Part shown: positions 4,921 through 13,453 of the stretch, piece after piece
Layout: the number at the start of each line of letters is the position of its first letter
Numbering within the stretch: position 1 is the stretch's first letter
Source of the DNA: Trinickia mobilis
GTDB taxonomy: Bacteria; Pseudomonadota; Gammaproteobacteria; Burkholderiales; Burkholderiaceae
Direction: 5' to 3'
Length of the DNA: 39,087 nt
NCBI RefSeq assembly: GCF_017315705.1
Contig: NZ_JAFLRF010000047.1
Coordinates: 1-39,087, forward strand
Position numbers and translations under genes: made by a program
Notes under the pieces: generated by a model
The model's input: the letters and a program-made list of their open reading frames with translations, nothing else
What the model was told of the DNA's origin: nothing
Database searches by the model: none

Positions 4921-6576
4921 TCAATGCCACGCCATCTGAACGACCTTGACGATCACCAGCCCGACCGCGATCACCAGATACCCACGCAGCACGCCCATCC
5001 AGACACGCTTGGACAGCGTGAGATTCGGCTTCGGCAGTTGTTCGAGCGGCGGCATGCGCCACGTGTCGCGCACCTTCTTCAAGGCCGCCTTGCTCGGCGC
5101 CGGTGCTTCTGCCGCCGCTGCGCTGCGCGTCTTGCGCACGATTTCGGTGGCTGCGTAGCCGACGATGGCGAGCAGCGTGCCGCCGACGAGGATCTCCATG
5201 ATCGCCTTGCCGCTGATATCCGGATACACGGTGGCGGTGGTCAGGATGATCGACAGCACGACCAGAATCCAGATGATCGCGCCCGTGAACAGATTCAGCT
5301 TTTTGCCGTTCACCCACGGACCGAGCACGGCACGGTCGTTGCACAGCAGCAGCAGGAACACGGTGGCGCTCGGCAGGAGCACGCCGGCGAGCGTCTGCAC
5401 GGCCTCGGTCAGAAGGCCGAGCGGGCTGCCCGGCATCAGCACGAGCGCCGCGGCGAGCGCGATGATGCCGAAGTAGACGAGGTAGAAGCCCTTCGCGTCG
5501 AGCACGCTGCGATGCAGCGAGTGACGGATCTTGAACACGTCGCCGATCGCGTAGGCCGTCGCGAGCGAGACAGCGGCAGCGCCGATGATCGAAGCGTCGA
5601 GCAGCGCGACCGCGAAGATCGTCGCCGACGTCGGGCCGACGTACTTGTGCAGCCCGGCGATCACGCCGCCCGCATCGGTGAAGTTGCCGAACTCCGGACG
5701 TCCCGCGAAGAGCGCTGCGCAGAAGGCCATCATCGCGACGGCGCCGATGATCACGAAGGCAATGCCGATCCACAGGTCCGCCTTTTCGTACTTCATGAAG
5801 CGCGGCGTGATGCGCTTGTCGATCACGTAGCTTTGCTGGAAGAACAGCTGCCACGGCGCGACCGTCGTGCCGACAATGCCGATCACGAGCAGCATCACGT
5901 CCGACAGCTTCGAGTTCTTCGGCCAGCTCGGGATAAGGAAGTCGCGCGTGATGACGCTGACCGGCGGATGGATCGACACGAGCACCGGCACCAGCAGCAG
6001 GCTCAAAAGGCACAGCACGATCGCGAAGCGTTCGAAGCGCCGGAAGTTGCCGGTGCTCACGGCGGCCATCGTCAGCACGGCGGCGATGCAGACGCCGAGC
6101 ACCTTCGACACGCCGAGATAGTCGAGCGCAAAGGTGATGCCGATGAATTCGGTGACGATCGTGAGCGCGTTGAGCAGGAACAGGTCGATGACGCTGAAGG
6201 CACCCCAGAACTTGCCGAAGCGCTCGAAGATCAGGCGTGCGTGGCCGACGCCCGTTACGGCGCCAAGGCGCAGCACCATTTCCTGGTTCACGTACAGCAC
6301 GGGGATCAGGAGCGCGAGCGTCCAGAGCAGCGACGTGCCGTAGTTCTGGCCGGCTTGCGTGTAGGTGCCGAACGCGCCCGCATCGTTGTCGCCGACCATC
6401 ACGATGAGACCGGGGCCGAGAATCGCGAGCAGCGTGCGCAGGCGCGCCCACCAGTTGGTGCGCGGCGCGGTGTCGTGGTGCGCGATCGTGCCGAACGCGC
6501 CGCGGATATCGCCGACGTGGGCGTCGTCGAGCACGGCGCTCCGTGTCGTCGACGAGACGTTTGCAGGTGTGGACAT
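4921..6576 (-). CDS. NRAMP-superfamily divalent metal transporter, NRMT-like (possibly Mg2+)
   Basis: A 551-residue inner-membrane protein with a ~45-residue cytosolic N-terminus, about 11-12 hydrophobic helices, and a charged Ala/Lys-rich loop before the last helix. It aligns with NRAMP (MntH) along the whole core, but the two metal-binding motifs differ. The helix-1 DPGN motif is replaced by Asp65-Ala-Gly-Ala68 (within GDNDAGAFGT), and the helix-6 MPH motif by Ala240-Pro-Trp242 (within TTVAPWQLFF). Loss of the soft methionine ligand is the hallmark, as I recall it, of NRAMP-related magnesium transporters (NRMT). Mg2+ transport is therefore more likely than Mn2+/Fe2+, although automatic annotation would say Nramp. 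It is preceded on the same strand by a small gene, a hairpin element and a proline/acid-rich leader peptide, which suggests metal-responsive attenuation. Confidence 0.88.
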   Translation of the reverse strand: MSTPANVSSTTRSAVLDDAHVGDIRGAFGTIAHHDTAPRTNWWARLRTLLAILGPGLIVMVGDNDAGAFGTYTQAGQNYGTSLLWTLALLIPVLYVNQEMVLRLGAVTGVGHARLIFERFGKFWGAFSVIDLFLLNALTIVTEFIGITFALDYLGVSKVLGVCIAAVLTMAAVSTGNFRRFERFAIVLCLLSLLLVPVLVSIHPPVSVITRDFLIPSWPKNSKLSDVMLLVIGIVGTTVAPWQLFFQQSYVIDKRITPRFMKYEKADLWIGIAFVIIGAVAMMAFCAALFAGRPEFGNFTDAGGVIAGLHKYVGPTSATIFAVALLDASIIGAAAVSLATAYAIGDVFKIRHSLHRSVLDAKGFYLVYFGIIALAAALVLMPGSPLGLLTEAVQTLAGVLLPSATVFLLLLCNDRAVLGPWVNGKKLNLFTGAIIWILVVLSIILTTATVYPDISGKAIMEILVGGTLLAIVGYAATEIVRKTRSAAAAEAPAPSKAALKKVRDTWRMPPLEQLPKPNLTLSKRVWMGVLRGYLVIAVGLVIVKVVQMAWH

Positions 6577-6672
6577 TTTTAGTTTTCCTATGCGTAGAGC
6601 TAAAGCGGTCGTGGCGCAGCCTGCCGGACGATGTGGGTCGAGCGAGCGGCGGGCTGCGCGGTTTCAGTGTCG

Positions 6673-6822
6673 TCAGTCAGCGAGCTTCTTGAGCGCGGTC
6701 CAGAGCGCGGCGGCCACGCTGGCCGATGCGTGCGAACGCGGCTCGAGCGTCAGCATCTCGTCGTAGTGCGTGCGAGCTTCGTCGACGCGCGGGAGCTGCG
6801 GTACGAGAAGAGCGAATTGCAT
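6673..6822 (-). CDS. 49-residue small protein upstream of the NRAMP-like gene
   Basis: A short open frame with an excellent ribosome site: GGAGGA at 6829-6834 with six bases to the ATG at 6822. The product starts MQFALLVPQLPRVDEAR and ends WTALKKLAD. It has a short hydrophobic start, an acidic middle and an Ala-rich amphipathic C-terminal helix, and no signal peptide or metal-binding cluster. The stop lies 96 bases before the transporter ATG on the same strand, so the two are probably co-transcribed. I do not recognise the family. It could be a regulatory or accessory micro-protein for the transporter, or a translated leader whose translation affects transporter expression. Confidence 0.6.
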   Translation of the reverse strand: MQFALLVPQLPRVDEARTHYDEMLTLEPRSHASASVAAALWTALKKLAD

Positions 6823-6852
6823 GATGAATCCTCCACAATCATTGAAACCTGG

Positions 6853-6930
6853 GGCCCGAGGGTGGCCAGTCCGGTTTCAGCTCACACGGATCGAGACGAT
6901 CGGACGTGTGGGGAGGAACGAATGCGGGCC
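6853..6930 (-). promoter_or_regulatory. candidate structured leader element (attenuator or riboswitch-like)
   Basis: On the minus strand an outer stem pairs GGCCCG (6925-6930) with CGGGCC (6853-6858). It encloses a strong inner hairpin at 6883-6910: CACACG, three bases, GATCG, a TCT loop, CGATC, then CGTGTG. The element begins six bases after the stop codon of the 23-codon leader peptide and ends about 20 bases before the ribosome site of the 49-codon gene. A leader peptide followed by a stem-loop ahead of the coding genes is the geometry of translation-coupled attenuation. It matches no riboswitch class that I can recall. Confidence 0.5.
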
Positions 6931-6935
6931 TTCCG

Positions 6936-7007
6936 TCAGGCGAAGCAAAAAGTCGGGCGCGTGAGGGCGCAGGTATGGCAAGAGTGACTAGGCTCAGGGT
7001 CGGGCAT
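6936..7007 (-). CDS. 23-residue leader peptide with Pro/acid-rich start
   Basis: An ATG at 7007 is preceded by AAGGA (7015-7019) at seven bases. The peptide begins Met-Pro-Asp-Pro-Glu-Pro and continues SHSCHTCALTRPTFCFA, with three Cys and two His. Alternating prolines and acidic residues directly after the start are what destabilise translating ribosomes when Mg2+ is low; the enterobacterial mgtA leader MgtL has the same kind of N-terminus (from memory, Met-Glu-Pro-Asp-Pro). The stop lies next to the stem-loop element and upstream of an NRAMP-related transporter that may carry Mg2+. I infer a Mg2+-sensing leader peptide. The frame also extends upstream to 7208, but only this short part has a ribosome site. 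Confidence 0.5.
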   Translation of the reverse strand: MPDPEPSHSCHTCALTRPTFCFA

Positions 7008-7388
7008 TTCGATTTCCTTTTGTCTTTCCCGTTGTCGCGTCGCGAAACACGGATGTGTTGAACCACACGCCTTTTCGAACACCGGCGCAGCATGCTGCCG
7101 GCCAGCGAAAAGGCGCAAACGAACGGCGCCGCGAGCCTGATGGCTCGATGCGCCAGACCATCGACGCGGATGTGCGAACGCGCGCACGTCGCGAAGGCGG
7201 CGTATCAATCGAAGAGGTGCGAAGGGAGTACTGCGGAAGCTACTGCGATGCGCACCGTCTGCCTGTCGGCATGACGGCGGCTAAAGAAGAATCAGCGCGG
7301 GGCGTCGTGCCAGTCAGGCAGAAATACTGTTCGAAGATCGACTACTGCAACTGTCCAAGGCATATGCCCCATTTGTGGAAACAACTGA

Positions 7389-7418
7389 ATTTTAGTGATT
7401 TGCTATAAGACAAGTCAA
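7389..7418 (-). promoter_or_regulatory. putative sigma-70 promoter for the leader/transporter unit
   Basis: On the minus strand TTGACT (7413-7418) and TAAAAT (7389-7394) are separated by 18 bases in an AT-rich stretch. This would start a transcript near 7382, giving a leader of about 370 bases before the leader peptide. A closer promoter was not obvious. The stretch from 7008 to 7388 otherwise shows no supported gene. Confidence 0.45.
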
Positions 7419-7537
7419 CGCATACGCAGAAGAATTTTCTTACGTTTCAATTACGTAGCGCGTACGATGCCGAATTCCTCTGCACACCTGCGCATCGGCA
7501 ACGAAGCCGTTGCCGAGCTGCGGACCGTCGTGGCGGT

Positions 7538-7813
7538 TTAACTTGATGCGAGACCTTTGCGCAGCAGTTCGTCGACGAGGCCCGTCATCCCTTCCGGATG
7601 GCTGGCCGCGCGTTCCTTCAGCGTCGCCGCGAGCTCGCCGTCGAGCTTGCACGCGAACGGCACGAGCCCTTTTGCCTGATCGAGCTTGCGCTGCTCGCGA
7701 CGGTCGAGCACTTCGACGATGCCTTTGCCGAAGCGCTCGGAGCGCGTCTGCTTCATCGAGTGGGTCAGTTTGAGCGCCTTGCTCTTTTCAAGGTCGGTTT
7801 TCTTCATTGGCAT
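7538..7813 (-). CDS. conserved hypothetical protein, 91 aa
   Basis: A small basic protein starting MPMKKTDLEKSKALKL and containing ERFGKG, EVLDRREQRKLDQA and VPFACKL. The C-terminal part (HPEGMTGLVDELLRKGL) looks like the second helix of a ribbon-helix-helix DNA-binding fold, as seen in small antitoxin-like or plasmid-partition-type proteins. I recall similar short proteins in Burkholderia genomes, all annotated hypothetical. ATG 7813 has AGGAC about nine bases upstream. No toxin partner lies next to it. The 105-base gap to the dehydratase gene on the same strand makes co-transcription possible. The function is unknown. Confidence 0.75.
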   Translation of the reverse strand: MPMKKTDLEKSKALKLTHSMKQTRSERFGKGIVEVLDRREQRKLDQAKGLVPFACKLDGELAATLKERAASHPEGMTGLVDELLRKGLASS

Positions 7814-7918
7814 GCGGAAGTGTCCTGCGGTTGGAGTGGGGCGGCCTGTAGCCGGTGGGCCCGTATTGTACGCAGTGCGCGCGGGCCAGCCCAGACGGGC
7901 CGGCCCGCCTCGTGCCCG

Positions 7919-13392: not shown

Positions 13393-13453
13393 TGTCTCCT
13401 CCATGTCTCCTCTGATATGGATTCAGCCCGCCAACCTAGGCGGGCTTTTTTTT
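13393..13453 (+). ncRNA. candidate small RNA with repeated anti-Shine-Dalgarno motif
   Basis: A ~60-base transcript is predicted between the promoter at 13358-13386 and the intrinsic terminator at 13425-13453. The 5' single-stranded part carries two pyrimidine motifs, GTCTCCTCC and GTCTCCTCT, complementary to GGAGGAGAC-type ribosome binding sites. No credible protein is encoded. This resembles trans-acting sRNAs with exposed CU-rich seeds, such as the CCUCC-type sRNAs known in proteobacteria. It could alternatively be a short untranslated leader that terminates early. Confidence 0.55.
13425..13453 (+). terminator. intrinsic terminator of the candidate sRNA
   Basis: A perfect 8-bp stem, AGCCCGCC / GGCGGGCT, with a 6-base loop is followed by a run of eight T. 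It is too far (127 bases) from the receiver stop and too close to its own promoter to be just that gene's terminator, though it may serve both. Confidence 0.85.

What the first reader, a model, noticed from the sequence alone, without database searches (positions are those of the whole stretch)
6936..7007. MgtL-like leader peptide ahead of an NRAMP-related transporter
Seen: a 23-codon frame with a good ribosome site whose product begins Met-Pro-Asp-Pro-Glu-Pro, ending six bases before a stem-loop. Known: N-terminal acidic residues interrupted by prolines destabilise ribosomes in low Mg2+, the basis of MgtL control of mgtA in enteric bacteria. Inferred: a separately evolved Mg2+ sensor in Burkholderiaceae controlling a different transporter family. 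The Cys/His-rich tail (SHSCHTC) might add a second metal or redox input.
Basis: partly seen in the sequence, partly recalled or inferred. Interest (0 to 1): 0.8.

Follow-up and report, generated by a model that had tools for sequence, protein, structure and literature searches.

The report
Acidic leader peptide with RNA switch
Ahead of a probable magnesium importer, Burkholderia relatives keep a tiny gene whose product starts with alternating acidic residues, behind an undescribed folding RNA that also sits before other magnesium genes, which suggests a separately evolved way of sensing magnesium shortage.

Summary
The short frame is real (minus strand, 7007-6936, MPDPEPSHSCHTCALTRPTFCFA). An SD-led ORF starting M-(x)-D-x-[D/E] occurs in 38 of 43 Burkholderia, Paraburkholderia, Caballeronia and Trinickia NRMT leaders (0 on the reverse strand, 0.2 in shuffles). 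Picking the best-SD ORF by position alone, 60 of 64 long leaders have that start. In 13 distinct homologues chosen by transporter identity only codons 2-6 look selected as peptide. All are 23 codons long, and the Cys/His tail is not conserved.
The frame belongs to a larger leader: conserved promoter, a structured RNA of about 124 nt without Rfam match (7371-7248), this uORF ('uORF-B'), a conserved 45-49-codon ORF ('uORF-C', 6822-6673), then the transporter. The RNA has a covarying hairpin and a competing helix, like a switch. It also precedes MgtC-family genes (22 of 132 loci), a duplicated ABC permease (14), RND adaptors (4) and MgtA (2).
Best reading: a Mg2+-starvation leader that works like enterobacterial MgtL/mgtQ (ribosome drop-off at early acidic residues), joined to a new RNA element. 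Mg2+ response, drop-off and Rho termination are inferred, not shown.

The parts
7389..7418 (-). sigma70-like promoter, TTGACT (7418-7413), 18 nt, TAAAAT (7394-7389)
   Evidence: Only promoter-like site found in 6480-7850, shuffles mean 0.2; TTGAC and TA.AAT recur just upstream of the RNA element in the relatives' alignments.
7248..7371 (-). structured RNA element of about 124 nt, candidate switch
   Evidence: nhmmer finds it in 43 of 43 Burkholderia/Paraburkholderia/Caballeronia/Trinickia NRMT loci and 6 of 37 others; covariance model R1 scores 127.1 bits here (R1 was built with this copy in it); no Rfam match even at E<=5; fold z -2.13.
7250..7281 (-). hairpin H2 of the element: strand 2 GCCGCCGTCATGCC (7281-7268) with strand 3 GGCAGACGGTGCGC (7263-7250)
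   Evidence: 85-sequence alignment A2: 9 of 13 pairs have changes on both sides, 33 such cells against 9.3 in shuffles, 0 of 500 shuffles reach it. A2 was fitted to this structure; the unfitted A1 gives 4 pairs and 14 cells against 3.4.
7303..7312 (-). strand 1 TGGCACGACG, pairs with strand 2 in the competing helix or with UGCC near the 5' end
   Evidence: Alignment-free test: best helix of strand 2 with upstream RNA scores 19.3 against 12.8 in shuffles, p<=0.05 in 60 of 85 copies. Alignment-based covariation for it is weak, and absent for the 5' helix.
7013..7020 (-). Shine-Dalgarno of uORF-B (AAAGGAAA)
   Evidence: Sequence. Homologues were searched with an SD required, so their SDs are not independent support.
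6936..7007 (-). uORF-B, the finding: 23-codon leader peptide MPDPEPSHSCHTCALTRPTFCFA
   Evidence: the best-SD ORF at this place starts M-(x)-D-x-[D/E] in 60 of 64 long leaders; 13 of 13 distinct homologues chosen by transporter identity are 23 codons long.
6912..6918 (-). candidate anti-Shine-Dalgarno TTCCTCC, complementary to the SD of uORF-C
   Evidence: In DPxP-type leaders it lies 15-18 nt after the uORF-B stop and varies with the SD (TTCCTCC/GGAGGAA, TTCCTTC/GAAGGAA); L219, a DSDS-type leader, has 11 pairs at the same place. In the window alone it is not significant (p 0.40); over all 66 leaders 12 reach p<=0.05.
6827..6836 (-). Shine-Dalgarno of uORF-C (GTGGAGGATT)
   Evidence: Sequence.
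6673..6822 (-). uORF-C, 49-codon ORF MQFALLVPQLPRVDEARTHYDEML..., no Pfam or NCBIfam match
   Evidence: In 13 distinct homologues chosen by transporter identity codons 7-25 (outside the search pattern) vary .198/.186/.361 by codon position, i.e. coding; in 66 distinct ones from the pattern search .446/.295/.500. No family match.
6614..6659 (-). inverted repeat GCGCAGCC...GGCTGCGC just before the transporter
   Evidence: Sequence; conservation not tested.
4921..6576 (-). NRMT-type NRAMP transporter (probable Mg2+ importer), 551 aa
   Evidence: PF01566 E 4.6e-80; best PDB chain 7qia E 1e-47; helix-6 TxxA motif (TTVA), helix-1 D-A-G-A.

Best explanation
uORF-B is a translated leader peptide that reports Mg2+ shortage to a Mg2+ importer, as MgtL does for mgtA, but inside a different and larger leader. 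Shown by comparison: a conserved promoter starts an RNA that first makes a switch-like element, then uORF-B with an M-(x)-D-x-[D/E] start (and, in close relatives, a fixed length), then the conserved uORF-C, then the transporter. Inferred: in ample Mg2+ ribosomes read through Asp3-x-Glu5 to the stop, the anti-SD holds the uORF-C start closed, and the C-rich untranslated RNA lets Rho stop transcription. In low Mg2+ ribosomes fall off at codons 3-5, the RNA refolds, uORF-C is translated and the transporter is made. The RNA element adds a second, uORF-independent input, because it also stands alone before most MgtC-family genes seen.
For: Early acidic motif in 38 of 43 leaders against 0.2 expected. 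Picking the best-SD ORF (SD of 5 or more) 120-300 nt after the element, with no motif used, 64 of 67 long leaders have one and 60 of the 64 start M-(x)-D-x-[D/E]. In 13 distinct homologues chosen by transporter identity (window plus 12 of 12 loci at 90 per cent or more) codons 2-6 vary .113/.000/.297 by codon position, the tail shows no such bias, and length is 23 in 13 of 13, as expected if the early residues and the stop position matter. Position 5 uses all four Asp/Glu codons, and Ser/Pro swap at 4 and 6. Over 132 element loci the genes behind are NRMT 60, MgtC 22, duplicated ABC permease 14, RND 4, and 2 of the 17 unassigned are Mg2+ P-type ATPases. uORF-B is before NRMT 46/60, ABC 10/14, RND 4/4 and both MgtA; its loose pattern hits the reverse strand in 1 of 132. 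Own genome: 4 strong copies, before two NRMTs, an MgtC and a DUF6697-type gene. Acidic residues adjacent or one apart, early in the chain, cause stalling or drop-off, and MgtL EPDP drop-off lets mgtA be transcribed (PMC11282234, passages); Asp2/Glu5 of mgtQ act likewise for MgtB (PMC8092293, passages). C exceeds G (31:17) over 6993-6916, as a Rho site would.
Against: No expression or Mg2+ data. The commoner DSDS form lacks Pro between the acidic residues. Asp3 is not universal: L163 has MPGSDS and L209 MPASDN at the same place, and 3 of 67 long leaders have no ORF with an SD of 5 or more there. Synonymous codons are also fixed (AGT, and TTA 14 of 14, ATA 7 of 7 at codon 9, rare in this window), so RNA or codon identity matters too. 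Only 2 of 30 sampled MgtA loci carry the cassette, and only 3 of 22 MgtC leaders carry uORF-B. The anti-SD is not significant in the window alone. Helix 1 of the transporter reads D-A-G-A, not the DxxG of NRMTs, and one member of the NrmT group carried Mn2+ instead (PMC4072509, passages).
Confidence: 0.55

Rival explanations
1. The RNA element is the sensor (a riboswitch for Mg2+ or another ligand). uORF-B and uORF-C only relay its state by translation and Rho, as uORF1/uORF2 do behind the M. tuberculosis M-box; the acidic start is secondary.
For: The element is in every Burkholderia/Paraburkholderia/Caballeronia/Trinickia NRMT leader tested (43 of 43) and stands without uORF-B before 19 of 22 MgtC genes. 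It has a covarying hairpin and a competing helix. The Mtb M-box leader has the same order: aptamer, rare-codon uORF1, anti-SD, conserved uORF2, Rho (PMC12810186, passages).
Against: It does not explain why the uORF at that place starts with D-x-[D/E] in 60 of 64 long leaders, or why acidic-Pro uORFs sit before NRMT in 13 of 37 other loci, 8 of them without a detected element.
Confidence: 0.25
2. uORF-B is a rare-codon attenuator: slow decoding of AGT, TTA or ATA and Cys/Ser codons senses tRNA charging or general translation state, not Mg2+.
For: TTA in 14 of 14 Leu and ATA in 7 of 7 Ile at codon 9, AGT in 17 of 22 Ser at codon 4 (40 aligned distinct homologues), though TTA, ATA and AGT are 0.7, 3.7 and 5 per cent of their codons in 8 long window ORFs taken as genes. 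Salmonella mgtP responds to charged tRNA-Pro (PMC8092293, passages).
Against: The DPxP subgroup, including the window, has neither TTA nor ATA at codon 9, and the acidic start is kept where these codons are not.
Confidence: 0.1
3. The conserved thing is an RNA motif, not the peptide: uORF-B starts on a degenerate second copy of the element core, a site for an RNA, protein or the ribosome.
For: The best match to the element core within the leader starts within -12..+6 of the uORF-B start in 27 of 45 distinct leaders (24 exactly at -3), 1.4 expected (the window was not in this set). Direct similarity exceeds shuffles (13.7 against 11.1; p<=0.05 in 16 of 46) and the reverse complement does not.
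Against: The window itself is not significant (p 0.40). The leaders share descent, so these are not independent. The mean match score is a negative log-odds. Codons 2-6 change mostly at third positions and never at second positions in 13 homologues chosen without the motif.
Confidence: 0.1

Closest known systems
MgtL leader of mgtA (Salmonella, E. coli)
   Same: Short SD-led ORF in the 5' leader of a Mg2+ transporter, acidic residues one apart within the first five codons with Pro between (EPDP there; DPEP here), C-rich leader compatible with Rho.
   Different: Other transporter family, other organism group, a separate structured RNA upstream, a second conserved uORF; most distinct homologues have Ser, not Pro, at codon 4 (22 of 40). 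Homology to MgtL beyond the motif and PhoP dependence were not tested.
mgtQ between mgtC and mgtB (Salmonella)
   Same: Very short ORF with Asp2 and Glu5 that promotes translation of a Mg2+ transporter through alternative stem-loops hiding the next SD (PMC8092293, passages).
   Different: mgtQ is 8 codons and lies inside an operon; here 23 codons in a 5' leader.
M-box riboswitch with uORF1/uORF2, M. tuberculosis pe20 leader
   Same: Order: structured RNA, poorly conserved rare-codon uORF1, anti-SD, conserved uORF2, gene; tied to Mg2+ and mgtC (PMC12810186, passages).
   Different: The RNA element here does not match M-box or any Rfam family, and uORF-B has an acidic start.
M-box before NrmT in Clostridium acetobutylicum
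   Same: RNA-level control of an NRAMP-related Mg2+ transporter (PMC4072509, passages).
   Different: M-box; the paper says most Mg2+ riboswitches act through an intrinsic terminator. Here no Rfam match, and no terminator-like site on the leader strand in 6480-7850.

Membership tests
MgtL-type (ribosome-destabilising) leader peptide | short SD-led ORF in the leader of a Mg2+ transporter gene | tested here: met
   Mg2+ specificity of this transporter is predicted, not measured.
MgtL-type (ribosome-destabilising) leader peptide | acidic residues adjacent or one apart within the first codons, kept in evolution | tested here: met
   38 of 43 loci; 60 of 64 long leaders by a pick that ignores the motif.
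MgtL-type (ribosome-destabilising) leader peptide | proline between the acidic residues | tested here: inconclusive
   Pro at codon 4 in 17 of 40 aligned distinct homologues, Ser in 22, Gly in 1; the window itself has Pro.
MgtL-type (ribosome-destabilising) leader peptide | Mg2+-dependent drop-off and Rho-dependent termination | not testable with these tools
   Only a C-over-G excess at 6993-6838 was seen.
MgtL-type (ribosome-destabilising) leader peptide | controls mgtA | tested here: not met
   Gene here is NRMT; cassette before MgtA in 2 of 30 MgtA loci.
M-box (ykoK) and other Rfam RNAs | match to the covariance model | tested here: not met
   No match for 6500-7620 at E<=5; none over the leader at gathering thresholds; in six other element loci only tRNAs.
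NRMT (NRAMP-related magnesium transporter) | helix-6 TxxA/T in place of A/CxxM | tested here: met
   GTTVAPW here; GTT[VI]APW in 80 of 80 relatives; signature from PMC8806188 (passages).
NRMT (NRAMP-related magnesium transporter) | helix-1 DxxG in place of DxxN | tested here: inconclusive
   D-A-G-A here: neither DxxN nor strictly DxxG.
NRMT (NRAMP-related magnesium transporter) | transports Mg2+ | not testable with these tools
   One NrmT-group member carried Mn2+ (PMC4072509, passages).

The most novel reading that the evidence does not exclude
Burkholderiaceae use an undescribed class of Mg2+-responsive switch RNA, spread over NRMT, MgtC, MgtA and other transport genes, and couple it in the long leaders to an independently evolved drop-off peptide (M-(x)-D-x-[D/E]) and a conserved small ORF, so that RNA folding and ribosome stability sense Mg2+ together.
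Probability: 0.4. Interest if true: 0.9.

Novelty: new variant of a known kind. Interest (0 to 1): 0.77.

Why it matters
If true, sensing Mg2+ through ribosome drop-off at early acidic residues evolved more than once: D-x-D/E here, and acidic-Pro starts (MDPSSS, MDEGPS) before the same transporter type in Pseudomonas and Bradyrhizobium loci. It also adds a structured RNA without an Rfam match that marks a Mg2+ gene set in a large group of soil, plant-associated and opportunistic bacteria. Both parts can be tested with reporters, cell-free translation and RNA probing.

Tried and rejected
Led nowhere: a fuzzy pattern search for the element matched unrelated places; RNAalifold on all copies with a plain alignment gave only part of the structure. 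A supposed third uORF (MGHMPWTVAVVDLRT...) was dropped: the frame has no consistent start codon across loci and is the element core read as protein. The lookup used the wrong strand for L081 and L082; corrected. One script stopped on an index error after printing the needed strings.

Considered and rejected: membership in M-box or any other Rfam family; an intrinsic terminator in the leader (one search finds none on that strand); a conserved metal-binding Cys/His tail; the weak fifth own-genome element hit C58:96925, E 0.0066, treated as chance by its sequence. Results against: the 5' helix shows no covariation; the competing helix shows none on A1 and only partly on A2, so it rests on the alignment-free test; a class-wide sample found the element in 0 of 368 other genomes (strict filters, few candidates scored per genome, so weak copies would be missed).

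Circular counts set aside: the 40 aligned homologues and the 20 were chosen with patterns that require Asp3 and Asp/Glu5, so their invariance and their zero change at second positions prove nothing. I replaced them (pick by SD and position; pick by transporter identity). The uORF-C figure included positions fixed by its search pattern; one search leaves them out. My odds did not need changing.

Dropped rows: of 54 element copies one identical sequence was left out of A1. One search was given 81 sources chosen by hand; one of its 85 matches (L006 1233-1316, E 0.0045) is probably chance and stays in the counts. All 129 non-own places in the table were fetched. The own copies C66 and C50 are not among the 132 classified loci, which include the weak own hit (L103). 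L179 is counted as NRMT on a 28 per cent match. The 67 long leaders are those with a classified gene more than 400 nt behind the element. The pattern admits chance frames (for example L167).

Full report
What is there. On the minus strand, 7007-6936 encodes MPDPEPSHSCHTCALTRPTFCFA behind AAAGGAAA. The gene that follows on the same strand, 6576-4921, is an NRAMP-family protein (PF01566). Its best solved relative is PDB 7qia, E 1e-47, which I identify from recall with EleNRMT. It has the helix-6 TxxA signature of NRAMP-related Mg2+ transporters but D-A-G-A in helix 1, where the paper gives DxxG (PMC8806188, passages read). Between the two lies a second small frame, uORF-C, 6822-6673 (MQFALLVPQLPRVDEARTHYDEML...), with no Pfam or NCBIfam match.

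Is the frame more than chance. Eighty NRMT loci were fetched by the transporter alone (which kept the best 80 of 576). Of the 43 titled Burkholderia, Paraburkholderia, Caballeronia or Trinickia, 38 have an SD-led ORF starting M-x(0-1)-D-x-[D/E] in the leader, against none on the reverse strand and a mean of 0.2 in shuffles. By the five without it are L011, L017, L033 and L035, whose leaders are short, and L020, which has MPGSDS. Of the 37 other loci, 13 have an acidic-plus-proline start (MDPSSSRPV in Pseudomonas, MDEGPSRPV in Bradyrhizobium), against none on the reverse strand and 0.8 in shuffles. These motifs were defined after looking. A pick without the motif was therefore run: in 67 leaders with the gene more than 400 nt behind the RNA element, 64 have an ORF with an SD match of 5 or more starting 120-300 nt after the element, and the best-SD one starts M-(x)-D-x-[D/E] in 60. 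The four others are MPDDPC, MPGSDS, MPASDN and one unrelated frame.

What is selected. All 12 sampled loci with a transporter at least 90 per cent identical to the window's have the uORF. With the window these give 13 distinct sequences, all exactly 23 codons. Variation by codon position is .113/.000/.297 in codons 2-6, but .404/.491/.496 and .463/.355/.400 in codons 7-12 and 13-23. So the acidic start behaves as peptide and the tail only as length; the Cys/His tail of the finding is not conserved. uORF-C behaves as coding.198/.186/.361 over codons 7-25 in the same loci. In 40 aligned distinct uORF-B starts (chosen with a pattern that requires the acidic residues) position 5 is written with all four Asp/Glu codons, and positions 4 and 6 are Ser or Pro with one Gly exception.

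The RNA element. Aligning the leaders showed a highly conserved block starting about 18 nt after a conserved TTGAC...TA.AAT promoter. nhmmer finds it in 43 of 43 of the Burkholderia-type loci, in both own NRMT copies and in 6 of 37 other loci. A covariance model, R1, gives four strong copies in the own genome and hits in 77 of 200 genomes of the family sample, but in 0 of 368 others in a class sample run with strict filters. Its 3' hairpin H2 covaries: 9 of 13 pairs have double changes, 33 cells against 9.3 in shuffles (the alignment was fitted to the structure; the unfitted A1 gives 4 pairs and 14 cells against 3.4). The 5' arm of H2 can instead pair with an upstream strand: mean helix score 19.3 against 12.8 in shuffles, p<=0.05 in 60 of 85 copies, although column-based covariation for this helix is weak. 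Two mutually exclusive helices are the anatomy of a switch. The window copy folds with z -2.13. Rfam gave nothing for this leader at E<=5, nothing over it at gathering thresholds, and only tRNAs in six other element loci.

What the element and uORFs sit before. I classified 132 element loci (all 129 non-own places and 3 own): NRMT 60, MgtC family 22, duplicated ABC permease 14, DUF6697-type 7, a 77-aa ORF 5, RND adaptor 4, a 72-aa ORF 2, OprB 1, none 17. Two of the 17 are Mg2+-translocating P-type ATPases (MgtA). uORF-B is present in 46/60 NRMT, 10/14 ABC, 4/4 RND, 3/22 MgtC, 8/17 unassigned (both MgtA loci among them) and 0 of the remaining 15 leaders. uORF-C is present in 47, 10, 1, 2, 9 and 0 of these groups. 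Both occur together in 66 of 132. The loose uORF-B pattern hits 71 leaders forward and 1 on the reverse strand. So uORF-B and uORF-C form a cassette placed between the element and various genes, while the element alone serves most of the MgtC genes seen. Own genome: NRMT (this window), an NRMT paralogue with uORF-B MPDSDSYPIRRSTRLLSFTVKSE, MgtC, and a 77-aa/DUF6697 pair. As a counter-check, of 30 MgtA loci taken by the MgtA protein only 2 carry the cassette.

How it most likely works. Acidic residues next to each other or one apart early in the chain make ribosomes stall or fall off; MgtL does this at EPDP in low Mg2+ and so prevents Rho termination before mgtA (PMC11282234, passages). mgtQ uses Asp2 and Glu5 to free the mgtB start (PMC8092293, passages). 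uORF-B has the same kind of start. In the DPxP-type leaders an anti-SD sits 15-18 nt after its stop and varies together with the SD of uORF-C, though the window alone is not significant and 12 of 66 leaders reach p<=0.05. The 78-nt stretch 6993-6916 has the largest C-over-G excess of the leader (31:17). The nearest whole-leader analogue I saw is the M. tuberculosis M-box with uORF1, anti-SD, uORF2 and Rho (PMC12810186, passages). I therefore infer Mg2+-dependent drop-off on uORF-B, with the RNA element as a second input. None of these dynamic steps is shown here.

What does not fit simply. Third codon positions are fixed too: AGT, and TTA 14 of 14 or ATA 7 of 7 at codon 9 among the 40, although rare in eight long window ORFs taken as genes. 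The uORF-B start also resembles the element core in register: the best core match within the leader lies within -12..+6 of the start codon in 27 of 45 distinct leaders (24 at -3) against 1.4 expected, with weak scores and shared ancestry; the window itself is not significant. Either codon speed or an RNA contact may be selected as well.

Novelty. Of nine paper searches sent, eight ran (one search failed on its wording). In their listings I saw no paper on this leader, this RNA or an acidic leader peptide in Burkholderiaceae; the library holds only open-licence papers, and several listings were capped. Function is of a known kind (MgtL-like control), while the parts list and the RNA are new to me, so I file it as a new variant of a known kind.

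Noticed in passing
window 13393-13453 (+): Match to Rfam RF02278, Betaproteobacteria toxic small RNA, 74.5 bits; the only Rfam hit in the window at gathering thresholds.
   Followed up: no
uORF-B starts and element cores of relatives (window 7007-6978 and 7371-7330, -): Nucleotides at the uORF-B start resemble the element core in the same register (GACAGT..CAGT.GTC or TAGTCGATCTTCGA), possibly a degenerate second copy; significant in 16 of 46 leaders, not in the window alone.
   Followed up: partly
uORF-B homologues in element-bearing leaders: Very rare codons are fixed: TTA 14 of 14 Leu and ATA 7 of 7 Ile at codon 9, AGT for most Ser at codon 4, against 0.7, 3.7 and 5 per cent usage in long window ORFs.
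   Followed up: partly
NRMT loci of alphaproteobacteria (L045, L047, L067, L073, L074) and an unassigned MAG (L079): ORFs of about 60-72 codons sharing a [CM][HP]W...D...G-R-x...W pattern lie in the leader, in some with a short MNDGP or MNPR uORF: perhaps a parallel leader system (by eye).
   Followed up: no
L104-L106, L108, L113, L115, L229; L111, L117, L127, L136 and own L102: The element also precedes a 123-aa DUF6697-type protein, directly (first group) or behind a 77-aa-type ORF (second group), with no uORF-B or uORF-C; the link to Mg2+ is unknown.
   Followed up: partly
L001 4173-4538 and 4749 onward; L002 4443 onward: Second NRMT gene in tandem with its own element; in L001 an MgtC-like N-terminal frame lies between them (by eye).
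   Followed up: no
L120, L140, L144, L145, L147, L156, L166, L171-L174, L177, L178, L226: Element before a duplicated binding-protein-dependent ABC permease of unknown substrate (PF00528 twice in the two tested; others by tblastn); a possible Mg2+-related uptake system.
   Followed up: no
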